A DNA stretch of 64,000 bases, from NCBI GenBank assembly GCA_001599355.1, contig BCGQ01000001.1, positions 2,483,135 to 2,547,134 of the forward strand, written 5' to 3'. The DNA comes from Nakazawaea peltata. Lineage: Eukaryota; Ascomycota; Pichiomycetes; Alaninales; Pachysolenaceae. This document shows positions 1 through 64,000 of this stretch, one piece after another. Each line of letters starts with the position of its first letter. Positions within the stretch are counted from its first letter, which is position 1. The translations under genes and the position numbers were made by a program. A model generated the notes under the pieces. That model searched no databases, was not told where the DNA came from, and saw nothing but the letters and a program-made list of their open reading frames with translations.

Positions 1-1039
1 AGGTACCGTCTCTCTTTCTGACGACAACCTTACCCAATTTCTTGTTGAATCTGGTCAAGTCGATCAATAAAGAGCCTTGGTCTTCTTTGGCCAAGTCGTA
101 CTTGGTGAAAAGTTCTTCAGCCTCTTTTAAGATGGATTGTGGGACTTGAGATTCACCAGAATAAAGGTCAAATACAATGTTAAGACGAGCATAAGTCTCG
201 ATATACTTCTCGATGGACAAATCACGGAATCTTTCCCAAATAGCAACGGCTTGTTTGTCACCGTCTTCCATTCTCTTGAAGAAAGCTCTGGCTTGACCGT
301 CGGTGGACTCTTCTTCGGATAAGGAGTCACCTTCGGAGGTGATGTCTTGGTTGACTCTGACGTAGACATCGAAAAGATGGTTGATAGGATCGGTTTTCAA
401 CTTCTCCTCGGAACCGTATCTCTCGAAACCAACGGCCAACACACCAAACTGCTTACCCCAATCACCCAAATAATTCATAGTGAATACTTCCCATCCCAAT
501 TTTCTGTACAAGTTAGCGAGGAACCCACCGATGATGGTACTTCTTAAGTGACCAGCATGGAATGGTTTGGCAATGTTAGGAGAAGAGAACTCCAAGACAA
601 GTTTCTTACCACCACCAATTGGAGCTGAACCGTAATCGTCGGTTCTAGTCAAGACATCCTTGATAACAACGTTGTATAAGAACTTTGGAGAGAAGAAGAA
701 CTGGAGGAACTTACCTTGGGCCTTTACGTCTTGCAAATAGTTGCCCTTTGGGAACTTCTCGGCCCATTCCTTGGTCAACCCATCGAGATCTTTGCTCTTG
801 ACTCTCAATCTTGGGACTGGGACGATCAAATCACCTTTGTCTAAGGTGGTGGTCCATTCCAAAGCTGGGAAGATGATGGACTTTTCGACACCGGAGATCT
901 TGTGCAACTCCTCGGTGATGTAGTTACGGAATAAGTCGACAGTGTTGGATAATGGATGGGAATCTGGGACCGCTGGTGGCATCTCGGTGATACTGAGCTC
1001 TTTCAAGCGGTCGTTCAAGAAATCGACGGATCCAGTCAT
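1..1039 (-). CDS. Cytosolic arginyl-tRNA synthetase, N-terminal part (runs off the left edge)
   Basis: Charges tRNA-Arg with arginine in the cytosol (class Ia synthetase). The first 346 codons are visible; the ATG complement is at 1037-1039 and the frame stays open to base 1. The N-terminal tRNA-binding domain (about residues 1-130, including ISGVEKS and FPALEW) is followed by the catalytic signature SSPNIAKPFHAGHLRSTIIG, in which HAGH is the HIGH equivalent. Next come WEVFTMNYLGDWGKQFG and GDKQAVAIWERFRDLSIEKY. From memory this order and wording match the yeast cytosolic enzyme YDR341C (about 607 aa) rather than mitochondrial MSR1, and no targeting presequence is seen. The KMSKS-like part lies outside the window. 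PAC and RRPE-like motifs lie 110-160 bp upstream of the ATG. Confidence 0.95.
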   Translation of the reverse strand, partial: MTGSVDFLNDRLKELSITEMPPAVPDSHPLSNTVDLFRNYITEELHKISGVEKSIIFPALEWTTTLDKGDLIVPVPRLRVKSKDLDGLTKEWAEKFPKGNYLQDVKAQGKFLQFFFSPKFLYNVVIKDVLTRTDDYGSAPIGGGKKLVLEFSSPNIAKPFHAGHLRSTIIGGFLANLYRKLGWEVFTMNYLGDWGKQFGVLAVGFERYGSEEKLKTDPINHLFDVYVRVNQDITSEGDSLSEEESTDGQARAFFKRMEDGDKQAVAIWERFRDLSIEKYIETYARLNIVFDLYSGESQVPQSILKEAEELFTKYDLAKEDQGSLLIDLTRFNKKLGKVVVRKRDGT

Positions 1040-1658
1040 TGCAAATCTTTTGTTAATAGAGAAAGATGAGGGTATGATGTTTCTGGCACTGGAAAGTATG
1101 GATTTACCAAGTATCATGAACAGGTTTCCCTATGTAATTTGAGGGTTTGGTAACGATGAGAGTTGGGAGGGAGGAAAATTTTTTCAGCTCATCAGGGGGC
1201 AGAAGGGGAGGGCAGGAGGGGCAGAGGGGGGAAGGAAAGGTGGGGGGAGAAGGAAAGGGCCGAGAGGATGAGGCGAGACGATGGGGTAGCATTGTGTAGA
1301 GCAGGTAGAGAATGGGATTAGTGGACGCATTGTGAGAACCATGGCTCTACAGATCGTGACTACCGTAGTTTAGTTAGGTGTAAACGGTGGATGAGTCATA
1401 TTTAGTAGTGTACGAAATATCAATTTATTAAGCGCGGTTTTTCAAGAGCCTCTTGATTACCTAAAACGGAAATAAGCCTAACCCCCCAAACGATGAATTC
1501 ATTGATCAATTGAGTTTGAGTTTGTGGGCGCTGACCACTGCCCACTACTTTAATTAATACCTTTTCTACTCTTTGCTTACTCTCACCTACTCTCACCTAC
1601 TCTCTTCATAACTATATTTCTTGTTATTTTATCATAATTCTATTCATAATCTATTCTA
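1040..1658. other. Intergenic: ArgRS promoter and 3' flank of the first hexose transporter
   Basis: No convincing gene. The left half is the purine-rich 5' flank of the synthetase gene with the PAC/RRPE module. The right half holds a 10-bp tandem repeat (CTACTCTCAC, about 2.5 copies, 1577-1606) just downstream of the hexose transporter stop. Confidence 0.6.
1154..1193 (-). promoter_or_regulatory. PAC + RRPE-like module upstream of arginyl-tRNA synthetase
   Basis: CGATGAG (1154-1160, PAC core), GAAAATTTTTTC (1173-1184, RRPE-like) and GCTCATC (1187-1193, reverse PAC core) are packed into 40 bp, 115-155 bp upstream of the ATG. In S. cerevisiae the PAC/RRPE pair marks ribosome-biogenesis and translation genes (Dot6/Tod6 and Stb3 sites). 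That these proteins bind here is inference. Confidence 0.5.
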
Positions 1659-5925: not shown

Positions 5926-5984
5926 TTTAGTATAGTAGATGAATGTTGGGTGGAGGCGAGAGAAAAAAGGTGGATTAAGATCAA

Positions 5985-7851: not shown

Positions 7852-10800
7852 ATGTCATACACTCAAGAACTTGACGCGTTCGCGTCAAAGTTATCGGCCA
7901 ACACCGACTATCAATCCAAAGCGTCGGTAGTTTCCGAACTTTGTGATATGATCGAGGCCTTCAACGGTACTCAAGAGTATTCGTACTTTCTCAAAGTGTT
8001 GATGCCGGTGTTTAAACAGCAATTGGAAGAGGTGGCGGTGACTTTCGTGTCGAGTACGCCCGAACACAAGCTTCGGAACTTGATTCTCGAGATCATCCAT
8101 CGGTCCGCCATGAACGAGATCTTCCAACCCTATGCCGCTGATATTCTCTCCACCTTAATGAAGTTGTTGCCGGTGGAGAACGAGGAGAACGGGATCTTGT
8201 GTATGAAGATCATCACGTCGCTTCATAAACTGTACAAGAGTGAGCTTGAGGCTCAGGTCGGCGAGTTTATTGAGATAATCAACGGCGTTTACAAGAATAT
8301 GCCGGGGGTATTTAATGAGATGGTGGCTGGGACAGGAAATAGCACTGAAGGTGCCGGTAATGGAGCCGGTGCCGATGCCAATTCGCCGCCAATGTCTCCA
8401 ATTCCAGACGACTCCAAACTCCTCTCGAAATCAATGACCTCCTTCAAAATTTTATCCGAATGTCCAATCACAATGGTGTCTTTATACTCGTCATACAAAC
8501 AATTAGTAGCTACTTCGTTGCCGGAGTTCATTCCTCACGTGATCGCGTTGCTTGATCTCGAATCTCCTGCTCAGAAACAGGCCAGGGAGCTGGCTGAGCT
8601 GAAAGGTGAACATTTCGTGGCTCTGGACGCCAATTTACCCATCAAAAATAGACAAGCGTACAATGATTTCATCTTGGGACAGGTCAAGGCCGCCTCTTTC
8701 GTGGCTTATGTCTTCATTAGAGGCTATTCCACCGAGTATTTGAAAGATTATACACAGCAGATCCCGGATTTGATCGTCAGACTCTTACAGAACTGTCCAA
8801 GTGAGCTTTCACTGGCCAGAAAAGAGCTTTTACATGCCACCAGACACATTCTTTCGACCAATTTCAGGACCCTGTTCATTCCCAAGATTGATATGCTCTT
8901 TGACGATCGGGTTTTGATCGGAAATGGGCTCACTGTCCATGAGACTTTACGTCCATTGGCGTATTCAACTGTAGCAGATTTCATCCATAACGTCCGGGCC
9001 GAGTTGAGTCCTCAGCAGATATGGAAGACCGTAGAGATTTATTGTAGGAACCTCCAGGACAATACGTTGGCATTGACGGTTCAGATCATGAGTGCGAAGC
9101 TTCTTTTGAACTTGGTTGAGAAGATCATGAAGCTTCAGAGTAAGGCTGATAGTAGACTGTTGTTTATGTTGATCATAGATGCGTATGCTAAGAGGTTTGG
9201 TAGTTTGAATCGGGAATGGGAGGAGATAATGAGGGGGCATGAAGAGTTTTTGAAGAGAAAGACTACTCCAGAGGCGAAGTCTACGGAGTCAGTTGTCTCT
9301 GAGGTGGAGACCAGTTCAAAGGCTGAGAATGTCTCGACTGCTTTAGCTGCTTCAGCTGATCCAAAGGTTGAGACTTCTTCGGCTGACCAAGTCGAGTCAG
9401 CTCCATCGGCTTCGCCTCTGGAGCTGCCTCTGGAGCCACTGAAACTCCCCATCGAACTCTCATCCCCATCCTCCTCTGACCCCCTCAAAGACGCAAGATA
9501 CCTCTTCCGTACCTTAATGACCTTCCTCAAATCAGTCATCTTCGGCCTCAAAAACTGCAACGTCATCCCATCCGACTCTCCTCCATCAGGTCTGTGGGCT
9601 TCCACTCCCTCCGGTTTCTCCTCACAAGAACTCAACATCTTACGTACTCTTTACCGTGAAGGGATCCTTGGGCTCCGGTTCTTCCGTTACTCCAAGTCAA
9701 TTCTTCCCCCAGACCTTCCTAAACATTCGTTCGACTTGACAGGACCGAACCTCCCGATCACCTCGTCCAAAGACGAGAAGGATTTGATGGAGATCTTCGC
9801 TACGATGTTCATCAACATCGATCCTTCATCCTTCAACGAGATTGTCCAGTCGGAGATGCCCTTCTTGTACGCGGCCATGCTCGACAATGCCGCTTTATTG
9901 CACATTCCACAGTTCTTTTTGGCCAGCGACACCACCACGTCCAATTTCTCCGGCCTCTTGATCAGTTTCTTGAAAACCCAGTTGCCCGAGCTCGGAGATG
10001 TCGACATTGTCAAGTCGAGTATCTTGATCAGACTCTTCAAGTTGTGTTTCATGTCGGTGAATTTGTTCCCTTCGCTGAACGAAAGTGTCATTGTACCTCA
10101 TTTGAACGGGCTCATTTTGGAGTCGTTGAAATTGGTCACCACTGCTAAGGAACCATTGGACTATTTCTACTTGATCCGGACGTTGTTCAGAAGCATTGCC
10201 GGTGGCAGATTCGAGAACCTTTACAAAGAGATCATGCCGTTGTTGCAGGTGTTTTTGGAGTCGTTGAACAGGATGATCCGCACTGCCAGAAGACCCCATG
10301 AACGTGATATCTACGTGGAATTGTGTCTTACTGTTCCAGTCAGGTTGTTCGTGCTTGTGCCCCACTTGAATTACCTCATGAGACCTCTTGTGTATGCTTT
10401 GAATGGGTCTCAAGAGCTTGTCACCCAAGGGTTAAGAACTTTAGAGCTTTGTATCGACAATTTCACTGCCGAATACTTCGATCCGATCATCGAGCCGGTT
10501 ATTGAGGAGGTAATGCAAGCGTTATGGCGTCATCTTAAACCATCGCCGTATTTCCACCAACATTCTCACACAACGTTCAGGATTTTGGGTAAATTGGGTG
10601 GAAGAAACCGTAAATTCTTGAAACCTCCAAGCAATTTGGAGTTCGACACGGCCACCTCCCAAAAAGTAGAGCTGATGTTCGTCATTGAGGGCATCCCTGA
10701 CAAGGTTCCTGTGTCTGTGACACCGGGAGTCAACTCTGCCTTGTCGTTGTTAGTCGATTTGCGTCCAAAAACTCACTACCGAGTCAATGCTTTCAAGTAT

Positions 10801-13800
10801 TTGAAGACACTTTTGCAATTGTTCATTGATTCGAGTCCAATGCCCGATGATTACGAGGACCAGGTCAAGCTGTGTGTCGAGTATCTTTGTGAGGACACTG
10901 TGGACGAGTCGTCCAGCATGCTGCTCCAAGCTCATACACCACGTGACCAGGACAAGTTACAAAAACAGCAGGATTTGCTCAGTAAATTGGTCGAGCTGAT
11001 GTTCTATGCCGTTTCTATCGATGAGGTACTGGACGAGGCCCGTGAAACTATCGGCCATTTGTGTGAGCACTTCACTTTGAATGCTCTTGGGTCTTCGGCC
11101 GTCGAGAAACGTAAATTGGAGAGAGCTTTCTCGGTGAATCACAGCGAGGGCCAGATTTTCTTGGACGAACGGGCTCTTCTCGAGGCCATCTCGTATGCTC
11201 TTAGTTTCTATGTATCGGAAGTACGTGAGATGGGTGTCGAGCTGATCAAGACGGTGTTCCGCACGTCGGTCACTCTCTTCGGATCACCCGACAAGCTGCT
11301 CAAGTTCCCCTTCTTAAAAGCTTTGTATTCGACCTTTGTTCACCAGTGTTATAAAGAGGAATACTACAACAAATTGGGTGGATGTATTGGACTCACCACC
11401 ATGTTGGGTGATTTGGGGATCCCTGTGGCCTGGTTCACACCTCAACAGAGCGAGATTTGTCACGCCATGTTCTTCATTTTGCGTGATACTCCGGCCGATG
11501 TGCCGCTGACGGTCAGAGACATGGCCAAGGCGTTGATTTTGAAGGTGTTGAGGGAATGTAATCGGGAAGTATCGCAGGCTGAAGTGTTCCAAGGTCCATT
11601 CCAACTCGTAGTTAGTTCGTTAGTGGCCGATTTGGCTAATGCCAATGAAGCTGTGAGACATACGGCTCAAGAAGGGTTGAAACTGTTGTCGGAGACGACT
11701 CAGATGCCAATTGCCGAGCTTATGAAGAGCTCTAAAGAGTTGTTGTTGGCTCCGATCTTCGGTAAACCACTAAGAGCCTTGCCGTTCCCAATGCAAATCG
11801 GAAATATCGATGCTATCACCTTCTGTTTAGGACTCGAGAACACTTTCCTCACATTCAGTGAAGAGTTGAGAAGATTACTCAGCGAACTGCTTGCTCTTGT
11901 AGATGCTGACGATGAGAGTTTGATCAATGCCAACAGGATCTACGAACATAGAACATCTGAACAGCTCGTGAGACTCCGTGTGGTTTGTATCGAGCTCCTC
12001 TCTTTGCTGCTCACGAAACCGGAGTTTGCCGAGTACCAACAAGGAGCGATCAGGATCCGAGTCCTTGCCGTCTTCTTCAAGATCTTGAGTGCCAAATCCA
12101 CCGAGATCATCAACGCTTCTCATAAAGGTTTGGCGGCCGTGTTGGCCCAGAATGCCAAACTTCCGAAGGAGTTGCTCCAGAACGGATTGAGACCGATGTT
12201 GATGAACCTTTCGGACCACAAGAAGCTCACCGTTCAAGGTCTTGAGCTGCTCTCGAGGTTGTTGGAGTTGCTTATTTCGTACTTCAAGGTGGAGATTGGC
12301 CGTAAATTGCTTGACCATTTGATGGCTTGGGCATTGCCGGCAACATTACACCAAATTGCCAGTCAAGAGCTCGAGAACAACCCAACTGTCAAGGTGATGG
12401 TGGCCATCCTCAACATCTTCCATTTACTCCCTCCTAAACTGTACACTTTCATGGACGAGTTGATGAGAGCATTGGAGTACCTTGAGAATCATCTTGGACG
12501 TCGTCAAAGCTCGCCGTTCAGAGCTCCAATTGCCAAATTCCTCGACAGATTTGCCGACGAGAGTATTGAGTATTTCACCGGCAAGTTCGGCAACTCGTTC
12601 TATGGGTCTTGTCTTGGGTATTTCGTCGGGTTGGACGAGTGTGGTAAGCTCAGGGAGCTGCTGAAACTGGCAGCTAAGTCGTTGTACGAGTCGATCTCTG
12701 CTGAGCAAGACGAGGAGGTGAAATGTGTTCGGTTCGTCAACTTCATCCATCTCTTTGGGTCGATCACTCAGAGGGACGACTCATGGTTCGAGCTGGAACG
12801 TGACATGCTTCTTAGTCTTCCATCTCTTTTGCCGGAGATCTTGAGGATCGAGAGAGGTTTGCCATTGACCTCGCCTGTTCATTTGTTGGTTCAACAAGGA
12901 ACTGAGGAACTCCAGGACCGGTTTGTGGAGTATTTCGAGCATCATCAGGGCAATGCTGAGGAGGTGATCAGACTTTTGAACAGACTTTGTTCGCTTGACG
13001 TTGGGATTGCTACGTCGTTGGAGTCGTTTATCTTTGAGAAGATTGTCAAGTCTGAGGATGTGGAGCTTCGTCAACATTACTTGACGAGGGGAATTAGGAT
13101 TGGAACGAGTGAGGATTGTCCTTTGAAGACGAGTGTTTGGGTGTTTAAGAATATAGTGAATGGGATATTGGTGTATGAGGTTGGGAGAAGTGGGAATATT
13201 GATGTGTTTGGGCTGGGTGCGGCCAAGCCTGAGCTGGAGGAGCCAGCGAAGGTTGAAGCTGGTACTGAAGCTGGTACTGAAGCTGGTACTGAAACTGGCA
13301 CTGAAGAACCAGTCACAGAGACTGAACCGGGCACAGAAGCTGGCACAGAAGCTGGCACTGAAGAGCCGGGCACTGATGCTGTGCCGGGCACTCCAGAATG
13401 GATCTCCCTCCTCCACAACAACATCTACCTCTCTCAATCCTCCATCATCTCCGACCATCGTGCCGGTTCCATCGACACCTACCGTCTTCAACTCCTTCAA
13501 CTCACCTCCATCTTCCTCAAATACTCGCCTCATCTCTTGTCGCATCTCCGTAAAGAAGTGGTCAAGTTCAGTTGGAATTACATCAAGTTGGAGGACCTGC
13601 TCACCAAGCAGGCTGCCTACGTGACCACAGCTCACTTCATCGCCGCCTACGACACCCCAGTCAAGCTCATCACCCAGGTCTTCGTCGCCTTGTTACGTAC
13701 CCACCAAGTGGACACTCGTTATTTGGTTCGTCAAGCGCTTGATATCTTGGCTCCGGTCCTTCCTAAGAAGAGTGGAGAGCCAATGGAGTGGTTGAAATGG

Positions 13801-28205: not shown

Positions 28206-28916
28206 TTAACTTCTCTTCTTACTAGTTCTTTCCTTTCTTCTGTTCTCTCTTCTCTCTGCTTTGGTGAGGTATCTGAACTTCTTCTTCTTTTGTTTTGGTT
28301 TTGGAGCCAGTCCTGCTACAACTGCGTATTTCTTAGCTCTATCGATCGACTTCTCCAAGACTTCTTCGGATTTCTTCAAATCCACGTAGTTTGATTTGGC
28401 GATTTCCTCCAACATATCCCCATTGGAGTCCATGGATTCTATCGTTACTGTAGTCATTTGATCTTCTTCGGTATCTAAGGGAGTGGAGGTATATATGGCC
28501 TTTCTTTTCAAGATTCCTTTAACTCTTTCGGCCTCGGCAGCATCTTCATCATCACCGGAAAATCCAGTCCATTCTTCGGATTCTGAGTCCGAATCAGACT
28601 CCTTCTCATCATCATCACTAACTTCACCGTTCAAATCTTTCAACCCAGCATGAAACTGATCCAACTGTCTTTGAATATCCAGTTTACGTTCATCTCGTAT
28701 CTTTTTACGTTCCTCTATTCTAGCCAATCTTTCTTGTTCCAGGTTGAACTCCAGTGCCTTCTTCTGTCTCAGTACCTTTCTCTTATGGAATCCGGTAAGG
28801 TATTCTTTCCTGGCATCTTTGTCGAATACAACTTCTTCTACTCTATGCTTCAGTCTTTGTTTCTGTACGTATTTCTTACCACCGGTAAGGATTTCTCTGT
28901 TGGTTCTGACGGCCAT
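28206..28916 (-). CDS. RRP17: Rrp17/Nol12-family nucleolar pre-60S processing factor
   Basis: Nucleolar protein needed for 60S biogenesis and 5'-end processing of 5.8S/25S precursors (Nop25/Rrp17 family). 236 aa, as in yeast (about 235), ATG complement 28914-28916. The signature block is N-terminal: NREILTGGKKYVQKQRLKHR, then VVFDKDARKEYLTGFHKRK and a long charged coiled coil (QERLARIEERKKIRDERK, about residues 60-90). The middle is acidic (about 100-130) and the C-terminus is strongly basic (KPKQKKKKFRYLTKAERREN), as expected for a nucleolar RNA binder. An RRPE-like site and GATGAG lie 50-80 bp upstream. Confidence 0.93.
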   Translation of the reverse strand: MAVRTNREILTGGKKYVQKQRLKHRVEEVVFDKDARKEYLTGFHKRKVLRQKKALEFNLEQERLARIEERKKIRDERKLDIQRQLDQFHAGLKDLNGEVSDDDEKESDSDSESEEWTGFSGDDEDAAEAERVKGILKRKAIYTSTPLDTEEDQMTTVTIESMDSNGDMLEEIAKSNYVDLKKSEEVLEKSIDRAKKYAVVAGLAPKPKQKKKKFRYLTKAERRENRRKERTSKKRS

Positions 28917-50479: not shown

Positions 50480-53400
50480 TTAATCAAGATATCTATCTAA
50501 AGGTTCACCTAAAACGGACTCGATGACTTTAACCAAACCACTTCTTACCTCGTATTCGACCTCCTCGTCATCGTCATCCAACAATTCAGCAATCAATGGG
50601 ACCAACTGAGGTAATAATCCCAACCATTGGTCACCCACCTTTTGGTAGATCATTTTCAAGGTACGAGCAGTCCAGAACTTCTCACGAGCACGACAAGAAA
50701 GAGCCAAATGTGACATCAACAACTCATTAAGAGCCTTGTTATGTGAGTCGGAACCACAAGTTTGAGCTGCCGAAGAAATGGCCTTAACAAGGTACTTACC
50801 AATTCCATCCTCAATAGAGACAAGTTGGTCAGCTAAAGATTTGGAAATCAACTCGAAACGAGAATCGGTCGACCAGAAATCGTCACGGTCGTATTTGAAC
50901 GACGAGATCAACGAAATCAAGAGAACACGACGTAAATTGATATCGACGAGGTCTCCGTTCAGAAGTCTCAGCAATAATCTCTCTACATTATCCATTAAGT
51001 ACGAGTAATACGAGGTGACGATCGACTTCAAGTTCTCTTGTAATTTGTTGAAGAACTTGAAGAAGGCAAGGACTCTAGCAGGCTCGGAGATCGCTGGAGA
51101 AGCACCTTCACCATCGAAAGCCCATCTGGCCATGCTGGCAAACAACGGACGGAAGCTCTTGTCGTTCAATTTCATCACATAGGTGATACCACACTGGTAT
51201 AACGACAGCTCGATACGATGGATAGTATTGGACTCGTATTTACTGGAACTACGGTACTCGAGTGCTTGGAGTAAGAAGCGGAAGAAACGGTTCAGTTCAG
51301 TCGAAGCAGAACGTTTATCGATCTTCTCTACAGTGAGCTCCATGGTGTGTAAGAACAAACCAATTGCGACTGGATCCAATTGGGTCATCTCGATCCAAAT
51401 GGAGGTCAAAGATTTCAATACTTCCTTCAATTCCAAACTCTCAACGATGACATCCAAAAGAGATAATCTAGTGGACTCAGCAATAGTTCTGGCATTGAAA
51501 GCAAGCTTGAAGATCTCGTTCAAATTGGTCAAGATAAAGGCTGGTAACTTCTTAATCACACAAGAGAACAAAACGAGTACCGAGACTTGTAAAAGTTCTT
51601 TGTCATTGGAAGACTCGGACTCATAGAAGATCTCAAAGACTCGAGGGATGATCTTCGGGAAGAGACCAATCATCTTAACACCTACGATGGATATAATAGT
51701 TGTTATACAGTTCATAGAGGCGATCAAAATCTCCGGAGCATCTTTATGAAGCAATCCACGATCGGTGATGAGCACACGCAAGGTATCGATGAGGAGAGCA
51801 GAGTCGAGATGAGATGAGAATTTGCCAAATACAGTACTCAATGAGTCAATGGACGATTGAGAGAGTTCTACGTCTTGTTTACTTTGGACATTACTGAGTA
51901 AGACCGGAACTAAATCGATAGCAGCAGATTGGGCCAGCAGATCGGTTGAGGATTCCAATTCGAACTTCTTTCCAGCCAAAAGAGTCAAGTATCTTGCGAC
52001 TCCCAAGTCCAGCAGTTCTCTAGGAACAAGAACTGGAGTAACTGCCTCTATAAATGTCTTTATAGGTAACAAATTCAAGATATCACCTAAGATTTTGTAG
52101 AGATTAGAGGAGATAGTTTCGGATTGGGAGGTCAATTGGGCCAAAATGAACAGAACAAGATCACTGAAGGACAGTTTAAGATCAGCAGTTGCTTGAGATT
52201 CAGAGTCGAGTAAAACCGAGGCGATTTTAACTCTCAAATGAGGTAAAGAACTCAAGTCAACATTACCAGTGATGGTCTGATCCAAGAAATTGGTCATGTT
52301 GTTACGTAAATTGGTCAATTCCACAGGTGTCAACGATACAACATTGACTCCGAAGATACTACGAGCGATTAAACTCTTATACTCAGCAGATTCAGGGTCC
52401 AATTGAACTACTGGCAAGAGGTTACATAATTTCAAGTACTCGTGGAAGGCATGAAGTTGGTCGACAGGGTCGAAATTCTTCAAATAAGAAGAACCAAACT
52501 CCAAAAGAGCCCTACAATCAGCCATCTTATGCTTACTATAAGCTCTAGAATACTGTTGTCCACACAAGAAGAGCACTAAACTCATACTCAGTTGGACACC
52601 CAAGATTCTAGTCAAAGTAGAGAATAATCTGACCCTACGGTGTCTTGGGATGTGTTGGAAAGCACTGACGAAGGAGGCAGTCAAGAACTCAATCTCCTCG
52701 ACCTTTCCGTTCTGAGAGGCCGAAGCCAAAGCAGGAACTACACACATAATAGTCTGTTCGACGACATGGCTGGAAAACTCGTCATCTTGTCTGACCGTAT
52801 GAGCACCCATGAAGGTGAAGATAGGCATGACAGAGTGGAGGACAGTCTCAGGAGCCAACGAAGCCAAAGCAGCAACTACAAGTAATAATTTATTCTGGAC
52901 TTGAGGAGAGGCTGAAGATCTGATCGTAGCAACGATGGAATCGATTCTGATACTTGACAGATCGGCGAGTTTCTTGGAGTCATGATCGATTTTCAAGCTC
53001 TCAATTACCTTTAATAAACAAGAAGCCAAGGTTTCTTGAGTATAAACTACAGGAAGATTACCGTCATTATCTAAAGTCTCTAAATCGTTCAAGACATTCA
53101 ACAATTTCTGTAATAATGGGACAGAGACTGAATGTAACTCGGTGTTTAAGAGGACTTCTAAGATGAGAGTGACCTTTTTCAAGTGATCACCAGCCAATTT
53201 AGACACCAGACTGTCTTTCATGGCCAGTCTAGTTGACAGAGATGATCTTCTTCTTCTCTTGACAGTACCAGTCATATCTTGGGTCTGAGTCAAAGTGGAT
53301 TTCTTCAAGAGCAGAACAAAGATATCGCTGGACATGTTGAGAGGACCCAAAAGTTCAAGAGGGTCAATATCAGCACTCGAAGAGTCGATAATATTGCTGA

Positions 53401-55723
53401 CAATCTCCAATTGGAACTCATGTTTCAAATGAGGATACATTTCTTTCAACTTCAGAGCACATAACTCTACTAATTGCTCTTCACCTGAAGAAAGACCTTT
53501 AGCTACGAATTCTACAGCATGGTGGTTCTTTTCTTTGGTAGAAACTAAGCTGACAATGGTCGATTCGAAGTCACTGAAGGAAATACCAGCATCTTCACAG
53601 TTGAAAGACCATGTCGATCTGTCATCAAAGTAGTTCTTTAACAATTCCTCGAATAATTGAGAAGGTAAAGACACTCCCTTGACGACATGTTTAGCATTTA
53701 CGATGATTTGGATAAGCCTCATCTTTAATACTACTAAATTACTGGCCAAGGCATGAGAAACGAACATGGCATACAATAATTTACTGTTCTTCTTATCGGA
53801 TTCGATGATTTTATCCAACTTTGAGAAGATTTGATCCAGATCCAAGGCGAAAGATTCGGCAGAATCGGCCAATTCAGCATAAAGATGGGTGATCTCTTTA
53901 GGATCTAAGACTACTAATTGATCTGAGTTGGACAGGTAGATGGTTTTGGCCATGAAAAGGTCTTGGAAGTCTGGAGATTCCTTGGATTTGATGGTGGAAA
54001 TCAACTCACAAGCTCCTCTTCTGATGGAGGCCTTCTTATCGGCCAATAAAACCACCAAAGAAGGAAGAACCACAAACAAAGAAACCTTTCTATTCAAAAT
54101 CTCCTTGAATCTACGTCTTAAAATAGTTATAGACAGTAATCTTGCCCTGATAGGAACACTCAGAGACATCAGGACTCTCAATAAGAACGAAATAGAGCTC
54201 TCTGGAGAGCTGAAGACGGTCTTGTTGAAGGTTTGGAAGTACTTGTTCTGAATAGAGTCTACGAAAATGGTTACTAATCTTTTAAATTCGGAATTGGTGG
54301 CCGAATTCGATACTAAGAAGGAAGATTGGTCGGATTTTGAGAGATTCAGACTCAAATCTGCAGCTTCAGGAGCATCTTCGAACAGTTCTTGATCCTCTGG
54401 GTCCTCAGAAATACCCTCAAGAACGTCCTCTTCAACTAAAGTAACCTTCAATAACATTTCCAACGATTCTAAACTAGTATCATTCTCAAGTAAAGTAGCT
54501 ACGAATAAAGGTTTGTTCTTTTTAATTAAGAATTGGAAATATTCCAGAGATTGGGTCTGAGACTTCAAGAGATCGGTCAAGATGAGCTTGAAAGAGGTCT
54601 CGGAGGTCAAGTTGGCTTTAGTGAAGATCTCAGAGAACAAAGTGCCCGACATATTGTCATTGACAATACAAGATCTGATATAACTGGAGATGAATTTCTT
54701 GTTTCTGGCATCTTTGAATAAGATTTCTTTGAGGTCATCGGAGGTCTCGATCTCAGCTAACAGAGATGACACATTGAGAGGCAAGGCATCGGTGGACTGA
54801 ACAGCTTGGTAGATTTTTAACACAGCTGCCAAACTGTGTTTAGTAACAGTAGGAGTCGAGGTCAAAATCGAGTCGATACAAGCCAATAAAACGTCCTGTG
54901 ATAATGGGACAGACGAGGCAAATACCGATAAAATCGAATAAGCAGCTAACTTAGCATCTTGGGAACTTGATTTCAAAAGCTCACCACACGTCTTCAAGAC
55001 ACTTGGGGTCAACTCCTCCAATTTACCAGGACTGTCAAACAGCATCGACATAACTGAGGCGATGGTACAGCCTAAATAGAACACCAATTGTTTAGAGTTT
55101 TGGTTCTTGTAGTTTAATTGTTGGACCAAGTACAGCGAGTAGAATTTGGAGAAATCAACATCGGTGAAAGCCCTGAACATCACCTGTTGAGATGGAGTCC
55201 TTCCAGATTTCTTGAAATTGGATAAGAACTCAAAGATGTTAGGGAAACTTTGCTGAGGGATAACGTACAAGACACGGTTGAAAACTGGACGGTTATAATA
55301 TGGCAAGGCACTCAAGATCAACTCTTCCAGGTTATGAACATTGATATTGAACCTTCTTAAAGGCCATTCGGCCAGTTTGATTGAGATGGTCAAGTCCCAA
55401 AATGGGGATAACAAGTTCAAAAAGGCAGTGACTTGAGCATCTAAATTATTGTTCTGTTCTTGAGATTGGACAGATCTGTCAATGTTGATAGTTGTCTCAT
55501 GGAAGATGGTATCTCTGAACTTGGCAAATCTTCTGTCAATCAGACATAACTCCTCCAACAGGTCGACTGCATCATAGTAGATGGTCTCGTAGTCTTGAGT
55601 AGCGGCGTACTTTGGTTCGTAGACGAAGGAAACCGAATGTAACTTTGATCTTTTCTTACGATCCAAAGCAATGGTTTGGTTGGCCGTTGCAATGGTCGAA
55701 AGTTGGGCTGATAATGAGGACAT
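50480..55723 (-). CDS. UTP10: Utp10/HEATR1, HEAT-repeat subunit of the t-UTP (SSU processome)
   Basis: Nucleolar scaffold of the UTP-A/t-UTP complex, needed for pre-18S processing and rDNA transcription. 1747 aa (yeast 1769), ATG complement 55721-55723. The N-terminal signature is intact: MSSLSAQLSTIATANQTIAL, then KLHSVSFVYEPKYAATQDYE. HEAT repeats fill the rest. The C-terminal BP28CT-type domain (about 1480-1620) and tail (KFWTARTLKMIYQKVGDQWL, LDDDDEEVEYEVRSGLVKVI) match the family end. Codon use is moderately biased to preferred codons. The promoter has an RRPE palindrome 48 bp upstream of the ATG and a repeat array just beyond. Confidence 0.97.
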   Translation of the reverse strand: MSSLSAQLSTIATANQTIALDRKKRSKLHSVSFVYEPKYAATQDYETIYYDAVDLLEELCLIDRRFAKFRDTIFHETTINIDRSVQSQEQNNNLDAQVTAFLNLLSPFWDLTISIKLAEWPLRRFNINVHNLEELILSALPYYNRPVFNRVLYVIPQQSFPNIFEFLSNFKKSGRTPSQQVMFRAFTDVDFSKFYSLYLVQQLNYKNQNSKQLVFYLGCTIASVMSMLFDSPGKLEELTPSVLKTCGELLKSSSQDAKLAAYSILSVFASSVPLSQDVLLACIDSILTSTPTVTKHSLAAVLKIYQAVQSTDALPLNVSSLLAEIETSDDLKEILFKDARNKKFISSYIRSCIVNDNMSGTLFSEIFTKANLTSETSFKLILTDLLKSQTQSLEYFQFLIKKNKPLFVATLLENDTSLESLEMLLKVTLVEEDVLEGISEDPEDQELFEDAPEAADLSLNLSKSDQSSFLVSNSATNSEFKRLVTIFVDSIQNKYFQTFNKTVFSSPESSISFLLRVLMSLSVPIRARLLSITILRRRFKEILNRKVSLFVVLPSLVVLLADKKASIRRGACELISTIKSKESPDFQDLFMAKTIYLSNSDQLVVLDPKEITHLYAELADSAESFALDLDQIFSKLDKIIESDKKNSKLLYAMFVSHALASNLVVLKMRLIQIIVNAKHVVKGVSLPSQLFEELLKNYFDDRSTWSFNCEDAGISFSDFESTIVSLVSTKEKNHHAVEFVAKGLSSGEEQLVELCALKLKEMYPHLKHEFQLEIVSNIIDSSSADIDPLELLGPLNMSSDIFVLLLKKSTLTQTQDMTGTVKRRRRSSLSTRLAMKDSLVSKLAGDHLKKVTLILEVLLNTELHSVSVPLLQKLLNVLNDLETLDNDGNLPVVYTQETLASCLLKVIESLKIDHDSKKLADLSSIRIDSIVATIRSSASPQVQNKLLLVVAALASLAPETVLHSVMPIFTFMGAHTVRQDDEFSSHVVEQTIMCVVPALASASQNGKVEEIEFLTASFVSAFQHIPRHRRVRLFSTLTRILGVQLSMSLVLFLCGQQYSRAYSKHKMADCRALLEFGSSYLKNFDPVDQLHAFHEYLKLCNLLPVVQLDPESAEYKSLIARSIFGVNVVSLTPVELTNLRNNMTNFLDQTITGNVDLSSLPHLRVKIASVLLDSESQATADLKLSFSDLVLFILAQLTSQSETISSNLYKILGDILNLLPIKTFIEAVTPVLVPRELLDLGVARYLTLLAGKKFELESSTDLLAQSAAIDLVPVLLSNVQSKQDVELSQSSIDSLSTVFGKFSSHLDSALLIDTLRVLITDRGLLHKDAPEILIASMNCITTIISIVGVKMIGLFPKIIPRVFEIFYESESSNDKELLQVSVLVLFSCVIKKLPAFILTNLNEIFKLAFNARTIAESTRLSLLDVIVESLELKEVLKSLTSIWIEMTQLDPVAIGLFLHTMELTVEKIDKRSASTELNRFFRFLLQALEYRSSSKYESNTIHRIELSLYQCGITYVMKLNDKSFRPLFASMARWAFDGEGASPAISEPARVLAFFKFFNKLQENLKSIVTSYYSYLMDNVERLLLRLLNGDLVDINLRRVLLISLISSFKYDRDDFWSTDSRFELISKSLADQLVSIEDGIGKYLVKAISSAAQTCGSDSHNKALNELLMSHLALSCRAREKFWTARTLKMIYQKVGDQWLGLLPQLVPLIAELLDDDDEEVEYEVRSGLVKVIESVLGEPLDRYLD

Positions 55724-56649: not shown

Positions 56650-56836
56650 TTGGGGATACCCCCTCCTCCGACCCCTTTTTTTAGTTAGAGTACTTAAAAA
56701 ATTGCTAAGATTTCTTTAGATTTTTGTAATTGTTTAGCCGTATCTTTTTCGTAGCTTTAAGAGGGTGTAGTACTGGTGTAGAATTGTGTACTGAGGTAAA
56801 ATTGAGATCTAGGCGTTAAGGAGAATAGAGGAGATC

Positions 56837-58371: not shown

Positions 58372-60327
58372 ATGGCTTACCAACAGTACCCCAAATATCA
58401 TCTGTCGATGATGTCTGCAGGACCCTTTGACTCTATGGCTCAACCTGTGTCACTGCTGCAATTACAACAGATCCCTGTCTCTCACCTGGCCTCTCCATAT
58501 ATGGCCCAGGCGCGTTTCCTGGCGCCAAACGGTGCTCCTGTTTACGCTGGAGGTCACCAACCTGTCGCTGGAGCTGGCGCAGCTGGCTATTATGCTATGC
58601 CATCAGGTTCCAATTCTCAAGTTTCCTTGGGTAGTTACCACCCACATCCTCATCATCAGCATCAATCTCCTCAACTTCTGACTCCATATCCTGGAATTCC
58701 AGAGGAATATCATCATCGTCAGCATGAAAATGGTATCCCTAGGGGTAGTGTCGCTGCTGGAGGTGCTGATCCTCTGTACGATGATATCTACCTTCAAGGA
58801 CCCCCAGATATGATGTCCCCAGATAGACAAGGACATCATTCCAATGGACATTCTCCTTCGAGAACCGTGTATTTAGGAAATATCCCAAGTGATATCACTC
58901 CTAAGGAGTTGTTAGATCATGTCCGTTCAGGAATCATCGAAAGTATCAAGATCTTACCCCTGAAAAACTGTGCATTTATTTCTTTCTTGGATGAGAGTTC
59001 GCTGTTATTATTCCATTCTGACCTGATACTTAAACGTTTGACTATCAAACAGAACGATATCAGAATCGGTTGGGGTAAGAACACCCAGTTACCACCTGTA
59101 GTACTCAATTCTGTCAACCGTTATGGAGCCACCAGAAATGTTTATTTAGGAAATTTGGATCCCGAAACCACCGAAGATGAATTAGTACTGGACTTGTCCG
59201 AATTCGGTCCTATTGATACCGTGAAGTTGATCCCAGAAAAGAAGATTGCATTTGTTCATTTCACAAGTATCTTGGATCTGATAAGAGTCGTCCAAAACTT
59301 ACCAATCAATGAAAAATACCAGGATAAGAAGATCTTTTATGGTAAGGATAGATGTGCATTTATCACCAAGACTCAGCAGCATAATGCCCTGCAATATCTT
59401 GGATTGAATCCAAATTTCGAGCATTTGATCACCAATGCTGATAGAGAGTTTATTTCTACTGCTTTAGTTCAACAATCTACACTGCTGCTGCTGATTCTGA
59501 CTTCTGCTGGAGGTGCTAATAATTTGGGAAACAGAACAGTTTACTTGGGTAATCTCCATCCAGATTCTACCATTGAAGAGATTTGTAATGTTGTACGTGG
59601 TGGGATCTTACAGAATATCAGGTTAATTGCCGAAAGACATGTATGTTTTATCACTTTTATTGACCCAATTGCTCTGGCCCAATTCTTCGCTATGTCTTCA
59701 TTGCATGGATTAATCATTCATAATAGAAAGATCAAGATCGGATGGGGTAAACATTCTGGTCCATTAAGCAATGCTTTAACATTAGCTGTTGGTAACGGAG
59801 CCTCAAGAAATATCTATGTGGGTGGTTTAGATTTACAAAAATTCGTCATCAAAGATGAATCCGAGGCTTCTGAAGAAAGTGTATCAGAATTGGACAAGAT
59901 GCTGAGCAAATTAAGAACCGATTTCGAAGAATTTGGAGAAATTGAGCAGATCAATTTCTTTGTCGAGAAGAATTGTGCCTTTATTAACTTCACCAATATT
60001 TCTAATGCCATCAAAGCCATCGATGGTATTAAATACAAAAAGGACTACGAGAATTTGAAGATTAACTTCGGTAAGGACAGATGTGGTAATATTCCAAGAC
60101 AATTCCAAAACTATAATTCGAATAACGGTATGCAAAACGGACAACAACCTGGGAATCATGAAGATATTATGCTTAATAATGGATTTTTCGTCCAACAGCA
60201 AGCTGCCTTGGATGAAAATGGACATGAACTTGATGAGGGCTCGGTGATTAGTAGTAATAATGGGTCCAGGACATCACGTGATCAGAATGGTACTTTTAGC
60301 AACAACACAGACAGTGAATTTGAATAA
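58372..60327 (+). CDS. MRN1: Mrn1-like four-RRM mRNA-binding protein
   Basis: Cytoplasmic mRNA-binding protein; yeast Mrn1 binds many transcripts, including those for cell-wall and mitochondrial proteins. 651 aa from ATG 58372 (yeast 612). RRM1 starts at RTVYLGNIPSDITPKELLDH (about 164), RRM2 at RNVYLGNLDPETTEDELVLD (about 255), RRM3 at RTVYLGNLHPDSTIEEICNV (about 387) and RRM4 at RNIYVGGLDLQKF (about 479). Repeated IGWGKN/IGWGKHSG and FGKDRCG signatures are typical of Mrn1. Between RRM2 and RRM3 are four consecutive CTG codons plus one more (59482-59499). Read as Ala they give the Ala-rich segment STAAAAIATSAGG before NLGNRTVYLG, and DPIA[CTG]AQFF becomes DPIAAAQFF. Confidence 0.93.
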   Translation: MAYQQYPKYHLSMMSAGPFDSMAQPVSLLQLQQIPVSHLASPYMAQARFLAPNGAPVYAGGHQPVAGAGAAGYYAMPSGSNSQVSLGSYHPHPHHQHQSPQLLTPYPGIPEEYHHRQHENGIPRGSVAAGGADPLYDDIYLQGPPDMMSPDRQGHHSNGHSPSRTVYLGNIPSDITPKELLDHVRSGIIESIKILPLKNCAFISFLDESSLLLFHSDLILKRLTIKQNDIRIGWGKNTQLPPVVLNSVNRYGATRNVYLGNLDPETTEDELVLDLSEFGPIDTVKLIPEKKIAFVHFTSILDLIRVVQNLPINEKYQDKKIFYGKDRCAFITKTQQHNALQYLGLNPNFEHLITNADREFISTALVQQSTLLLLILTSAGGANNLGNRTVYLGNLHPDSTIEEICNVVRGGILQNIRLIAERHVCFITFIDPIALAQFFAMSSLHGLIIHNRKIKIGWGKHSGPLSNALTLAVGNGASRNIYVGGLDLQKFVIKDESEASEESVSELDKMLSKLRTDFEEFGEIEQINFFVEKNCAFINFTNISNAIKAIDGIKYKKDYENLKINFGKDRCGNIPRQFQNYNSNNGMQNGQQPGNHEDIMLNNGFFVQQQAALDENGHELDEGSVISSNNGSRTSRDQNGTFSNNTDSEFE

Positions 60328-60849: not shown

Positions 60850-62145
60850 ATGATTAAGGAAGTGGAATTTATTTTGGAATCTTTTTTAAGTGACCGTTCT
60901 AAAACAGGGATGATCTCCATGCATCCCTCTTTTGATGAGCTTCCTGTTGAACCACATCCTTCACCTATTTCTCTTGGATTGGGTGAGCCTTACCATCATT
61001 TCCAACCTATTACTGGCTTGAAAATTAAGTTACATAATTCTAAACAGGTTGAGATCCCAAAAGTTCACTCTACTAATAATGCCACTTTACTGCAAGAGGT
61101 GGTTATGTCTGAGACTTTGCGATACCAGGGGATGCTTGGAGTGACGGAGTTTTCTTTGTGGCTTAATGAGACGTTGATTCAGCATATGAAGCCTAAATAT
61201 GCTGACTGGGCATCTCACCTTACTTTTGGAAGGCAAAATGGGTACCATCGAGTACTTCATCTTTTAGCAAATGAAGGTGATTCAGTACTTGTTCCTGAGT
61301 TTTCGTCTGTGGTGTTAACTGAGCAAATTGAACATTTCAATGCCTCCGTAGTACCTTATAAGGTACAGGAGGTTAAAGGTACAGATGTTGTTCTGTTGGA
61401 ATCTTTACTCTCCGATTGGGATACTACGAAATCTTCCAGGCCTAAAATCATATTTGTATCCCCAAGTGGATCTGAGCTGTTCTCACAGTCAGATTCTCTT
61501 GAGACCAGATCTAAAATATACGAGTTGGCTCAACTGTTCAATATGATCATAATTGAAGATGATCCCTACTCTTTTATTAGTCTTAAACCTTCTAATTCGG
61601 CACTGGATTATATCAGCTCGTTAACTCCATCATACCTATCGCTTGATACTGCGGGAAGAGTAATTAGGCTCGACTCGTTCTCTAAAACATTTGCTCCGGG
61701 ATTGAGATTGGGTTTCTTAGTTGCACATGAACTGTTGGTATGCCGTCTTAATGCCTTCTCTGAGATCATCAATGATTTTCCACCTGGTCCTGCTCAAGCT
61801 CTTGTTTTCCATACCATCAATAATCTTGGAGGGTGGGTTTCTTGGTTTAGAGTATTAAGTGGGAAGTATCAGAGGAGATGGAATATCCTCAAAGAGGCTA
61901 TCGGTCATAAAACGACATTGATATCTCCTAAATATGGAGTCTCTCTGTCTTTTTTAGTCGCCAAACCAGAGATTGTACTTAAATTATGCCAAGATGCCCA
62001 TTTGCAAATGGCTACGATCAATTCACTTACAACTAAGAAGAAGATATTCAACATTCAGCTTAGCTCAGGTACAGATGCTGAATTCCAGCTGGCAGTGGAA
62101 AGGCTCTCGTTCGTCCTAGATGAATACTACAATGATAATTTATAA
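60850..62145 (+). CDS. Diverged class I/II PLP aminotransferase (Aro8/Aro9-like)
   Basis: Fold type I PLP enzyme related to aromatic or 2-aminoadipate aminotransferases. 431 aa from ATG 60850, shorter than Aro8/Aro9 (about 500), mainly at the N-terminus. Family landmarks: LRYQGMLGVTEFSLWL, KYADWASHLTFGRQNG, IIIEDDPYSF (Asp and Tyr of the PLP pocket) and RLDSFSKTFAPGLRLGF with the Schiff-base Lys279. The usual PTGQNPTG loop is replaced by PSGSE[CTG]FSQ (residues 205-213), so the Asn that contacts the PLP ring is missing. The partner-stem region and C-terminal domain (PPGPAQALVF, KYGVSLSFLV) are present. It may have changed substrate or lost activity. Its stop is only 9 bp from the convergent KIP3 stop. 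Confidence 0.82.
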   Translation: MIKEVEFILESFLSDRSKTGMISMHPSFDELPVEPHPSPISLGLGEPYHHFQPITGLKIKLHNSKQVEIPKVHSTNNATLLQEVVMSETLRYQGMLGVTEFSLWLNETLIQHMKPKYADWASHLTFGRQNGYHRVLHLLANEGDSVLVPEFSSVVLTEQIEHFNASVVPYKVQEVKGTDVVLLESLLSDWDTTKSSRPKIIFVSPSGSELFSQSDSLETRSKIYELAQLFNMIIIEDDPYSFISLKPSNSALDYISSLTPSYLSLDTAGRVIRLDSFSKTFAPGLRLGFLVAHELLVCRLNAFSEIINDFPPGPAQALVFHTINNLGGWVSWFRVLSGKYQRRWNILKEAIGHKTTLISPKYGVSLSFLVAKPEIVLKLCQDAHLQMATINSLTTKKKIFNIQLSSGTDAEFQLAVERLSFVLDEYYNDNL

Positions 62146-62154
62146 ATGCTGTCT

Positions 62155-64000
62155 TTAAAATATAGAACTAATATCTCCAAATAAACTCTTAGGTTCATTC
62201 TCTTTGTAAGTTTCATCATCGGCTTGCATCATATCGGAAGTTTCAAAGAAACCTTTCTCTTTAGAAAGTTCTGGGGTGTCCTGTCCTTCTTTAGCCTCTT
62301 CTTCATCGTGTTTCTCGGGTGATACATTAATATCAAGTCTTCTTGGTTGAAGAGTTCTTTTAGGAGGACCCAAATTGAATTTCGCCAAAGGTGTAGAATC
62401 AGGGTCATCACCACGATGTTTCACCGGATCAGGAGGAACTAACTTTCGAGATGTAAGAGACGTACTTTTCAACTTAAACTGTTTCAAGCCATTGAAAGAT
62501 TTACTGTTCTTTGGGGGTGCAGAAATGTTCATCTTCTCTTGAAGACTTTGATGCAATGGAGTATCCTTCAGATCATCATCAGACATATCATCATCGTTCT
62601 CGAAATCCGAATATGACTCAGATGATTCAGACTCACTATCTTTATGAGGAACCTGCCAACGAACCCGTTTCGGTTTGGATTCCTGAATTCTTGCAGGCGA
62701 TCTGGATTTGGTTATTTTAGCTGGGGATTTATGTAATGGAGAAGGAGCCCGTTTGAAACTTCTTCTTTTAGGATTTAAAGAAGGAAAGCCACCTGTAGAA
62801 AGAGAATTGATCCCAGATGATTCTGAATAATCATTCAAAGGAACCTCAAGCGGAATATTGGCTTCAATCAAAGTGTCTAAAGCATTTGAAACGTCAGAAA
62901 CAATACTTTTCAAATTCTCAACCTTGATCGAATCATGCTCAAGACAAGATTTCAAGAGTCTCAAGAAATTCATACTCTGGAACTTGAAAGAAGACAATAC
63001 TGAAACGGACTCGTCGAAGATAACCGAACTCTCATATAATATCTCCCTCTCTACGGAACTTCTCAATCTTTCAATATGGATTTCAAAGTTGATAGTATCG
63101 AAGGAAGACCAACATTCATCTTCTGATAATCTCTTCAATATGGATTTCGGAGTATTGTTCAAAATATGATCCAATTGAGTTTCTCCAGCATACAGTTTTT
63201 CTAAATCGTCGATTTGTAAGAGATACTTTGTATGTAAAGTCTCAGCTTTGTGAACAATAGAGCTAAAACCGGGAACAATAGAATCAAGCTCTAAAAGATC
63301 ATCCTCCTCTTCTCGAATATTGAAGATTTTATCAAAAGACAGAACGAAATCCCCAACTTCATGAGCTAACACTTTCAAGATCTTCCGTTTGGCGAGTACG
63401 AACAGCTTCTGCTTCTTTATGATGCTATGATTGTCGATAGCATGAGCAATTTCATCCAAACCTTCAATTGCCAGCTTTTGGATCCTCTCATATTGCATTG
63501 ATTGTTGAGACAATGCCTGTTCTACAGCCTTCTTCTCTTTATTTCTCAAAAGTTCGATCTCTTGCTTCTGTTCAGTGATCATTTTCAAATATGAACCGAC
63601 ATGTCGATTCAAATTGTGTCTATTTCTAATCACTTTAGTCTTGATCTCTTTAGCTCGATTGGCATATTTCAAAGTATTCAATGTCTCATCATAATGCTCA
63701 GAAGAAGGGGATACACAAACAATCATTACAGTTTTACAATTGCCCCCAAGCGAGAACTTCAATAATCTAGTCAACTTGGAGTCTCTGTAAGGCACATGGT
63801 TACGTCTTTTAGGGTCGCATAAAGCATTTATACAGTTTCCAAGTGCCAATAAAGATCTGTTAATATTAGCACCTTCTTGTAATCTTTCGCCAGTGTTCTT
63901 GGTGGCAGCAGCTCTTTCACTTCCAGCAAGATCAATGATCGACAAGGTAGCAAAAGTATGTTCTTCTGTCAATCCTGAACCTTTAGGCCGAGAATCAATA
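62155..64000 (-). CDS. KIP3: Kip3, kinesin-8 motor, C-terminal part (runs off the right edge)
   Basis: Plus-end-directed microtubule motor and depolymerase that controls spindle length and nuclear position. About 614 residues are visible; the frame is open to base 64000, so the N-terminal half of the motor lies outside. The motor end shows switch [22 protein letters not shown], the helix [39 protein letters not shown] and [20 protein letters not shown]. The kinesin-8 neck block [20 protein letters not shown] is diagnostic. A coiled coil and helical stalk follow, then a basic Ser/Pro-rich tail ([20 protein letters not shown]) expected to bind microtubules, and a final acidic stretch. Start and promoter are not in the window. 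Confidence 0.95.

What the first reader, a model, noticed from the sequence alone, without database searches (positions are those of the whole stretch)
1..64000. CTG appears to encode alanine throughout the window (CUG-Ala yeast)
Seen directly: CTG codons at family-conserved positions fall where relatives carry Ala: NAM8 residue 186 in FVGDL[CTG]PDV, MRN1 residue 435 in DPIA[CTG]AQFF, SWR1 residue 887 in RWQ[CTG]LLNF, TRA1 at 17845 in SHSE[CTG]RLVR. From memory, the S. cerevisiae orthologues have Ala at the NAM8, SWR1 and TRA1 sites. Several sites tolerate Ser, but the MRN1 and linker sites fit Ala better than Ser, and none I checked demands Leu. Nuclear CUG-to-Ala reassignment is established for Pachysolen and relatives (code table 26). 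Standard-code translations of every gene here are therefore wrong at CTG.
Basis: partly seen in the sequence, partly recalled or inferred. Interest (0 to 1): 0.85.

Follow-up and report, generated by a model that had tools for sequence, protein, structure and literature searches.

The report
Yeast that reads CUG as alanine
This stretch of yeast genome uses a rare but already described genetic code in which the codon CUG means alanine instead of leucine, and the matching transfer RNA gene is present elsewhere in the same genome.

Summary
Observation and reading hold up. With CTG masked, five window proteins were aligned to solved orthologues. CTG columns show Ala in 21, Ser in 10 and Leu in 2 of 70 S. 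cerevisiae cells; in Komagataella (TRA1 only) Ala 13, Ser 3, Leu 0 of 29. Of 20 amino acids Ala fits best; the runner-up trails by at least 23 bits and Leu by at least 117. The same procedure called 53 of 59 and 49 of 54 control codons right. Pfam agrees: in the window Ala beats Ser by 27.8 and Leu by 111.5 bits (31 domain rows); in nine ORFs elsewhere in the genome by 15.2 and 37.1 (15 rows). A tRNA gene with anticodon CAG lies on another contig (C4:81426-81498), with a short variable arm and the alanine pair G3:U70. Two pattern searches found no Leu- or Ser-type CAG tRNA; the tRNA census is incomplete. This is the CUG-Ala code (NCBI table 26) of Pachysolen, Nakazawaea and Peterozyma: already known. 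Less trodden: CTG is common (22% of Ala codons), CTA is strongly depleted, and the CAG tRNA carries G37.

The parts
7852..19734 (+). TRA1 (SAGA/NuA4 subunit), 63 CTG codons; main source of CTG columns
   Evidence: PDB Tra1 matches, E=0; Tra1_ring, Tra1_central, FAT, PI3K and FATC domains; CTG columns
17845..17847 (+).
   Evidence: query position 643
30877..32340 (+). NAM8, 7 CTG; residue 186 at 31432-31434 is Ala in the S. cerevisiae NAM8 chain
33636..38309 (+). SWR1, 33 CTG; residue 887 at 36294-36296 is Ala in the S. cerevisiae SWR1 chain
50480..55723 (-). UTP10, 32 CTG
23986..25911 (-). DNA polymerase eta (RAD30-like), 13 CTG
58372..60327 (+). MRN1 (multi-RRM protein), 20 CTG; includes a run of CTG at residues 371-374 and 376 (59482-59499)
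Evidence: RRM_1 score 101.9 (Ala), 96.1 (Ser), 93.0 (Leu); translation.
60850..62145 (+). class I/II aminotransferase, 8 CTG; largest code effect on a domain score outside TRA1
   Evidence: Aminotran_1_2 score 48.2 (Ala), 44.0 (Ser), 37.1 (Leu)
28206..28916 (-). Nop25 / nucleolar protein 12 family, 6 CTG
   Evidence: score 125.2 (Ala), 123.7 (Ser), 120.3 (Leu)

Best explanation
The window comes from a budding yeast of the CUG-Ala group. In its nuclear genes CUG is read as alanine by a dedicated tRNA gene, at G000:C4:81426-81498 outside the window. That tRNA has anticodon CAG, a short variable arm and the alanyl-tRNA synthetase identity pair G3:U70. AlaRS does not read the anticodon, so a tRNA with an alanine acceptor stem can carry CAG and still be charged with Ala. 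Shown here: CTG columns are Ala-like, and the tRNA gene exists with Ala identity elements. Inferred: transcription, charging and actual insertion of Ala.
For: CTG columns against S. cerevisiae (TRA1 pieces, SWR1, UTP10, RAD30, NAM8): A 21, S 10, K 9, T 7, L 2 of 70; against Komagataella (TRA1 only): A 13, S 3, L 0 of 29. Ala is best of 20; Leu is -193 and -117 bits. Control codons were called right in 53 of 59 and 49 of 54. Nine of 28 TRA1 sites aligned in both species are Ala in both; none is Leu in both. Pfam, window: Ala over Ser +27.8 bits, over Leu +111.5 bits, 31 domain rows; elsewhere in the genome +15.2 and +37.1 bits, 15 rows (summed in 78). The tRNA(CAG) gene has G1:C72, G2:C71, G3:U70, C4:G69, A73, a short variable arm and a following T-run. 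It shares the U6.U67 mismatch and the AGGTC variable loop with this genome's tRNA-Ala(AGC). CUG-Ala with a tRNA-Ala(CAG) is the established state of Pachysolen, Nakazawaea and Peterozyma (PMC5951914, parts 1-3 of 5 of the text read).
Against: Not every column favours Ala. Ser scores above Ala in 9 of 31 window domain rows (at most 1.3 bits) and 2 of 15 elsewhere (at most 1.7); Leu above Ala in 7 of 31 (at most 1.9) and 4 of 15 (at most 0.6). In N-terminal TRA1, read by eye and not in the tally, S. cerevisiae has S, Q, S, I, S, L, K, L, I at nine CTG sites: no Ala and two Leu; Komagataella has T, A, E, V, A, M, Q, N, A. Four Komagataella cells in the TRA1 linker that I left out read Q, E, P, P by eye. 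A mixture fit leaves a Ser-like share of 0.23 (0.01-0.44) for S. cerevisiae and 0.22 (0.00-0.39) for Komagataella, above both Ala control codons fitted (GCT 0.17 and 0.03, GCC 0.00 and 0.00); the Leu share is 0.00. Charging was not measured.
Confidence: 0.96

Rival explanations
1. CUG is serine, as in the Candida (Ser1) or Ascoidea/Saccharomycopsis (Ser2) groups.
For: Ser is among the commonest aligned residues after Ala (10 of 70 and 3 of 29); 9 of 31 window and 2 of 15 outside Pfam rows score slightly higher with Ser.
Against: Ser is 25-33 bits worse than Ala in all four column tests and 27.8 bits worse over the window's Pfam rows. The only CAG tRNA found has a short variable arm, whereas tRNA-Ser has a long one. 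A 5'-half pattern for tRNA-Leu/Ser with CAG gave two hits, neither called a tRNA by ARAGORN.
Confidence: 0.02
2. CUG keeps the standard meaning, leucine.
For: A few columns have Leu in S. cerevisiae: 2 of 70 in the filtered tally, 4 of 83 without the gap filter, and 2 of 9 read by eye.
Against: True Leu codons in the same alignments match Leu in 62-69% of S. cerevisiae cells (CTT, CTC, TTG, TTA), CTG in 3%. Leu is 117-194 bits worse than Ala. The CAG tRNA is not Leu-shaped.
Confidence: 0.005
3. CUG is mainly Ala but partly ambiguous: either tRNA-Ala(CAG) is sometimes leucylated, because it carries A35, G37 and A73, or tRNA-Leu(UAG) sometimes reads CUG by wobble.
For: A35, G37 and A73 are the yeast tRNA-Leu identity elements listed in PMC8629427 (passage seen); all three are in the CAG tRNA. 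Position 37 is A, not G, in this genome's tRNA-Ala(AGC). A tRNA-Leu(UAG) gene with a 120-nt intron exists. CTA is strongly depleted (28 of 1577 Leu codons).
Against: No Leu component in the mixture fit of CTG columns (0.00), though low-level misreading would not show there. No expression, charging or peptide data.
Confidence: 0.1

Closest known systems
CUG-Ala code, NCBI table 26 (Pachysolen tannophilus, Nakazawaea, Peterozyma)
   Same: CTG in Ala-like columns; a CAG tRNA with Ala identity; most other codons that could be called are standard.
   Different: Nothing shown to differ. [quoted passage not shown] The species was not identified.
CUG-Ser1 and CUG-Ser2 codes (Candida group; Ascoidea and Saccharomycopsis)
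   Same: The same codon was moved away from Leu, and CTA is depleted, as reported for these groups (PMC6701816, passages seen).
   Different: Residue is Ala, not Ser; the CAG tRNA is of the short-variable-arm type; no tRNA-Ser(CAG) found in two pattern searches.
Standard code of the sister Pichiaceae (Komagataella, Ogataea)
   Same: TRA1 is closer to Komagataella than to S. cerevisiae (pieces 50% against 39% and 76% against 67%).
   Different: CTG is not Leu.

Membership tests
CUG-Ala code (NCBI table 26) | CTG columns of conserved proteins favour Ala over Ser and Leu | tested here: met
CUG-Ala code (NCBI table 26) | tRNA gene with anticodon CAG and Ala identity (G3:U70, short variable arm) | tested here: met
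   L037/L039 = G000:C4:81426-81498
CUG-Ala code (NCBI table 26) | ancestral tRNA-Leu(CAG) lost | tested here: inconclusive
   two patterns found no Leu- or Ser-type CAG tRNA, but the tRNA census is incomplete (63 of 608 candidates scored)
CUG-Ala code (NCBI table 26) | no other codon reassigned | tested here: inconclusive
   53 of 59 and 49 of 54 codons called as standard. ATG and TGG have no sister codon, so the leave-one-out test has no profile for them; the other misses (AGC, ATA, CGC, CGG, GGG) rest on 5 to 21 cells each; CTA had 3 cells and was not called
CUG-Ala code (NCBI table 26) | phylogenetic position in the Pachysolen/Nakazawaea/Peterozyma group, beside Pichiaceae | not tested
   no fungal genomes in reach; higher TRA1 identity to Komagataella than to S. 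cerevisiae is only a hint
CUG-Ala code (NCBI table 26) | Ala found at CTG sites in peptides | not testable with these tools
   needs mass spectrometry
CUG-Ser1 / CUG-Ser2 codes | tRNA-Ser(CAG) with long variable arm | tested here: inconclusive
   only a short-variable-arm CAG tRNA was found, but the tRNA census is incomplete
CUG-Ser1 / CUG-Ser2 codes | CTG columns favour Ser | tested here: not met
   Ser is 25-33 bits worse than Ala

The most novel reading that the evidence does not exclude
The single CAG tRNA found is a mosaic with two conflicting identities. It has the Ala acceptor stem (G3:U70, C4:G69, A73, U6.U67) but an anticodon arm with A35 and G37, listed as Leu elements. Its D-arm matches this genome's tRNA-Val(UAC) (17 of 19) and tRNA-Gln (16 of 19) better than tRNA-Ala (13 of 19), and overall it is closer to tRNA-Val(UAC) (52 of 74) than to tRNA-Ala(AGC) (49 of 74) (nine tRNAs compared). 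CUG would then still be slightly ambiguous (Ala/Leu), and the tRNA would be a chimera rather than a tRNA-Ala with only its anticodon changed. The near-loss of CTA and the long-intron tRNA-Leu(UAG) would be traces of avoiding Leu at CUG.
Probability: 0.1. Interest if true: 0.55.

Novelty: already known. Interest (0 to 1): 0.27.

Why it matters
Anyone translating this genome must use table 26; with table 1 or 11 about 1.5% of the residues in the window's ORFs, and 22% of their alanines, come out as leucine. For biology it is one more clean instance of a known nuclear sense-codon change. The points that could be worth a specialist's look are that CTG has become an ordinary Ala codon here, that CTA is depleted as in the CUG-Ser groups (the one codon-usage survey seen left the CUG-Ala species out), and that the CAG tRNA carries G37, the base linked to leucylation of the Candida tRNA-Ser(CAG).

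Tried and rejected
The first anticodon pattern was misplaced by one base and found no tRNA; one search corrected it. RF01852 gave nothing. Two patterns to find tRNA-Val(CAC) or tRNA-Val(AAC) as a possible source of the CAG tRNA found neither, and one search found six places: four that fit Gln genes, tRNA-Val(UAC) and the CAG gene itself. So the idea that it arose from tRNA-Val(CAC) by one base change in the anticodon stays untested. The test for virus-like-element remnants with DNA_pol_B_2 is uninformative: no control rang. The third translation was in a wrong frame and was not used. MATalpha was sought only to help place the species and did not settle it. Two RNA models were built but could not be used on this genome. 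One paper search held a malformed term and returned one unrelated paper.

Dropped before the main count: cells within four columns of an alignment gap. Without that filter S. cerevisiae has 83 CTG cells (A 22, S 11, T 9, K 9, E 6, N 6, D 4, I 4, L 4, V 2, P 2 and four single cells). I also cut the start of the second Komagataella segment of TRA1, a low-complexity linker with four CTG cells that read Q, E, P, P by eye. Not used at all: SWR1 residues 103-288 (aligned poorly), parts of SWR1 and UTP10 cut off in the printed alignments, TRA1 outside the two pieces, and rows printed for other chains (9ynu; 5jpq and 7suk-like UTP10 chains; other RRM proteins). The five proteins hold 148 CTG in all. 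The nine TRA1 sites were read by eye and left out of the count. SWR1 start positions were wrong by 1 and 3 and were corrected.

Pfam rows left out of the sums, as overlapping or weak, include some against Ala: SGSH_C (+2.1 for Leu), MFS_1 of the second transporter (+1.8 for Leu), RRM_PARP14_3 (+1.1 for Leu), RRM_YTH1 (+1.7 for Ser), ATG16 (+1.4 for Ser). Others left out, such as RRM_occluded in MRN1 (+5.2 over Ser, +10.9 over Leu), favour Ala. Of 11 ORFs listed, nine were scanned.
Full report
What was claimed.

The sites. All four are present as described. The S. cerevisiae chain has Ala at the NAM8, SWR1 and TRA1 sites, and the Komagataella chain has Ala at the TRA1 site. The PDB tables name the molecule only; the species of the chains (5oej as Komagataella, the others as S. 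cerevisiae) are recalled. The MRN1 site was not aligned on its own; over its RRM_1 matches Ala scores 5.8 bits above Ser and 8.9 above Leu.

CTG columns with controls. I masked CTG as X, searched the proteins against the PDB sequences and tallied the residue facing each codon (scripts 48, 49). The 70 CTG cells against S. cerevisiae (TRA1 pieces, SWR1, UTP10, RAD30, NAM8) are A 21, S 10, K 9, T 7, D 4, N 4, E 4, I 3, V 2, L 2 and four single cells. The 29 against Komagataella (TRA1 only) are A 13, S 3, E 3, V 2 and eight single cells. I then asked which amino acid's own column profile in the same alignments best explains the CTG tally. Ala is best; the next is 23 bits worse (Thr, S. cerevisiae) or 25.5 bits worse (Ser, Komagataella), and Leu is 193 or 117 bits worse. 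With only better-aligned cells kept (57 and 26), the second (Ser) is 33 or 26 bits worse and Leu 194 or 140. As a control, every other codon with at least five cells was called by the same procedure: 53 of 59 and 49 of 54 right, and 55 of 57 and 50 of 54 with the stricter filter. ATG and TGG have no sister codon to give a profile; the remaining misses rest on 5 to 21 cells each. True Leu codons face Leu in 62-69% of S. cerevisiae cells, CTG in 3%. At the 28 TRA1 sites aligned in both species, nine are Ala in both, two Ser in both, one Thr in both, none Leu in both. The two species share TRA1, so these are not fully independent tests.

Results against. N-terminal TRA1 is weaker: at nine CTG sites read by eye, S. 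cerevisiae has no Ala and two Leu; Komagataella has three Ala and no Leu. Four linker cells of Komagataella that I left out have no Ala. A mixture fit gives CTG an Ala share of 0.57 (0.39-0.73) and a Ser-like share of 0.23 (0.01-0.44) for S. cerevisiae, and 0.77 (0.55-0.96) and 0.22 (0.00-0.39) for Komagataella; the Leu share is 0.00 in both. The Ser-like share is above that of both Ala controls fitted (GCT 0.17 and 0.03; GCC 0.00 and 0.00). Mean local identity around CTG (0.47 and 0.60) is a little lower than around GCN (0.52 and 0.67), in line with the published remark that CUG sits at less conserved sites (PMC5951914, part 3 of the text read).

Pfam scores. Eighteen window ORFs, TRA1 given as two pieces, were scanned under tables 26, 12 and 1 (19 entries; one had no family). 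Over 31 domain rows chosen as best and mostly non-overlapping (Tra1_ring appears as two pieces), Ala exceeds Ser by 27.8 bits and Leu by 111.5; Ala is ahead of Ser in 15, behind in 9, tied in 7; ahead of Leu in 20, behind in 7, tied in 4. About a third of the gain comes from Tra1_ring (+9.8 over Ser, +33.5 over Leu). For a test outside the window, nine of 11 ORFs from four 9-kb stretches on contigs 2, 5, 7 and 9 gave +15.2 over Ser and +37.1 over Leu in 15 rows; Ala is behind Ser in 2 and behind Leu in 4.

The tRNA. The window has no tRNA gene. The genome (11,631,020 bases, 11 contigs) has a tRNA gene with anticodon CAG at C4:81426-81498; a DNA search with its sequence returned only this copy. 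ARAGORN names it Leu by anticodon, but it is 73-74 bases long with a short variable arm, has G1:C72, G2:C71, G3:U70, C4:G69 and A73, and is followed by a T-run. The sixth acceptor pair is U.U, as in this genome's tRNA-Ala(AGC) and tRNA-Ala(UGC), and the variable loop AGGTC is that of tRNA-Ala. Its D-arm and anticodon arm are less Ala-like: D-arm 17 of 19 to tRNA-Val(UAC), 16 of 19 to tRNA-Gln, 13 of 19 to tRNA-Ala; overall 52 of 74 to tRNA-Val(UAC), 49 of 74 to tRNA-Ala(AGC). The shared acceptor stem favours an Ala origin, as published for the group, but a chimera is not excluded. No tRNA-Leu(CAG) or tRNA-Ser(CAG) was found, though only 63 of 608 candidates were scored, so the census is incomplete.

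How it works. AlaRS does not require anticodon bases (PMC5951914, part 3 read), so a tRNA with an alanine acceptor stem and anticodon CAG puts Ala at CUG. Shown: column preference and tRNA gene. Inferred: expression, charging, insertion.

Known or new. The CUG-Ala code is described for Pachysolen, Nakazawaea and Peterozyma (PMC5951914, parts 1-3 of 5 read; PMC11415595, passage seen). A screen of 462 yeasts found 453 consistent with the known distribution and nine without a call (PMC8629427, section 7 read). The species here was not named, but its code is not new.

Side observations. CTG is 253 of 16367 codons in the window (15.5 per 1000) and 93 of 5724 elsewhere (16.2 per 1000), 22% of Ala codons in the window. 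CTA is 28 of 1577 Leu codons in the window (RSCU 0.089) and 8 of 537 elsewhere. CUA depletion is reported for the CUG-Ser groups, and the five CUG-Ala species were left out of that survey (PMC6701816, passages seen); one search for CUA usage in CUG-Ala yeasts returned only that paper and PMC8629427. A tRNA-Leu(UAG) gene has a 120-nt intron. The CAG tRNA has A35, G37 and A73; PMC8629427 (passage) lists these as yeast leucine elements, and PMC5951914 links G37 to the 3% leucylation of the Candida tRNA-Ser(CAG). This makes slight Ala/Leu ambiguity a fair but unsupported possibility.

Verdict. Observation confirmed, interpretation supported, already known; of practical weight for annotation, of modest scientific surprise.

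Noticed in passing
window ORFs, whole window: CTA is strongly depleted: 28 of 1577 Leu codons (RSCU 0.089), against 235 CTC and 312 CTT.
   Followed up: partly
L038, minus strand 1490-1697 (around G000:C4:804529): tRNA-Leu(UAG) gene with a 120-nt intron in the anticodon loop.
   Followed up: no
L037 1470-1543 (G000:C4:81426-81498): The tRNA-Ala(CAG) has G37 and a D-arm like tRNA-Val and tRNA-Gln rather than tRNA-Ala.
   Followed up: partly
L083 1909-3372, minus strand: An MFS transporter ORF holds 7 of the 8 CTA codons counted in the 11 ORFs of four stretches outside the window, which sets it apart from its neighbours.
   Followed up: no
window 59482-59499: MRN1 has four CTG codons, one Ile codon and one more CTG in a row, a short alanine-rich tract written in CTG under table 26.
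   Followed up: no
window 1659-3347 and 4291-5925, minus strand: Two adjacent, very similar sugar transporter genes, apparently a tandem duplication (similarity judged by eye).
   Followed up: no
L085, G000:C4:145775-145981: A single MATalpha HMG-box match in the genome.
   Followed up: no
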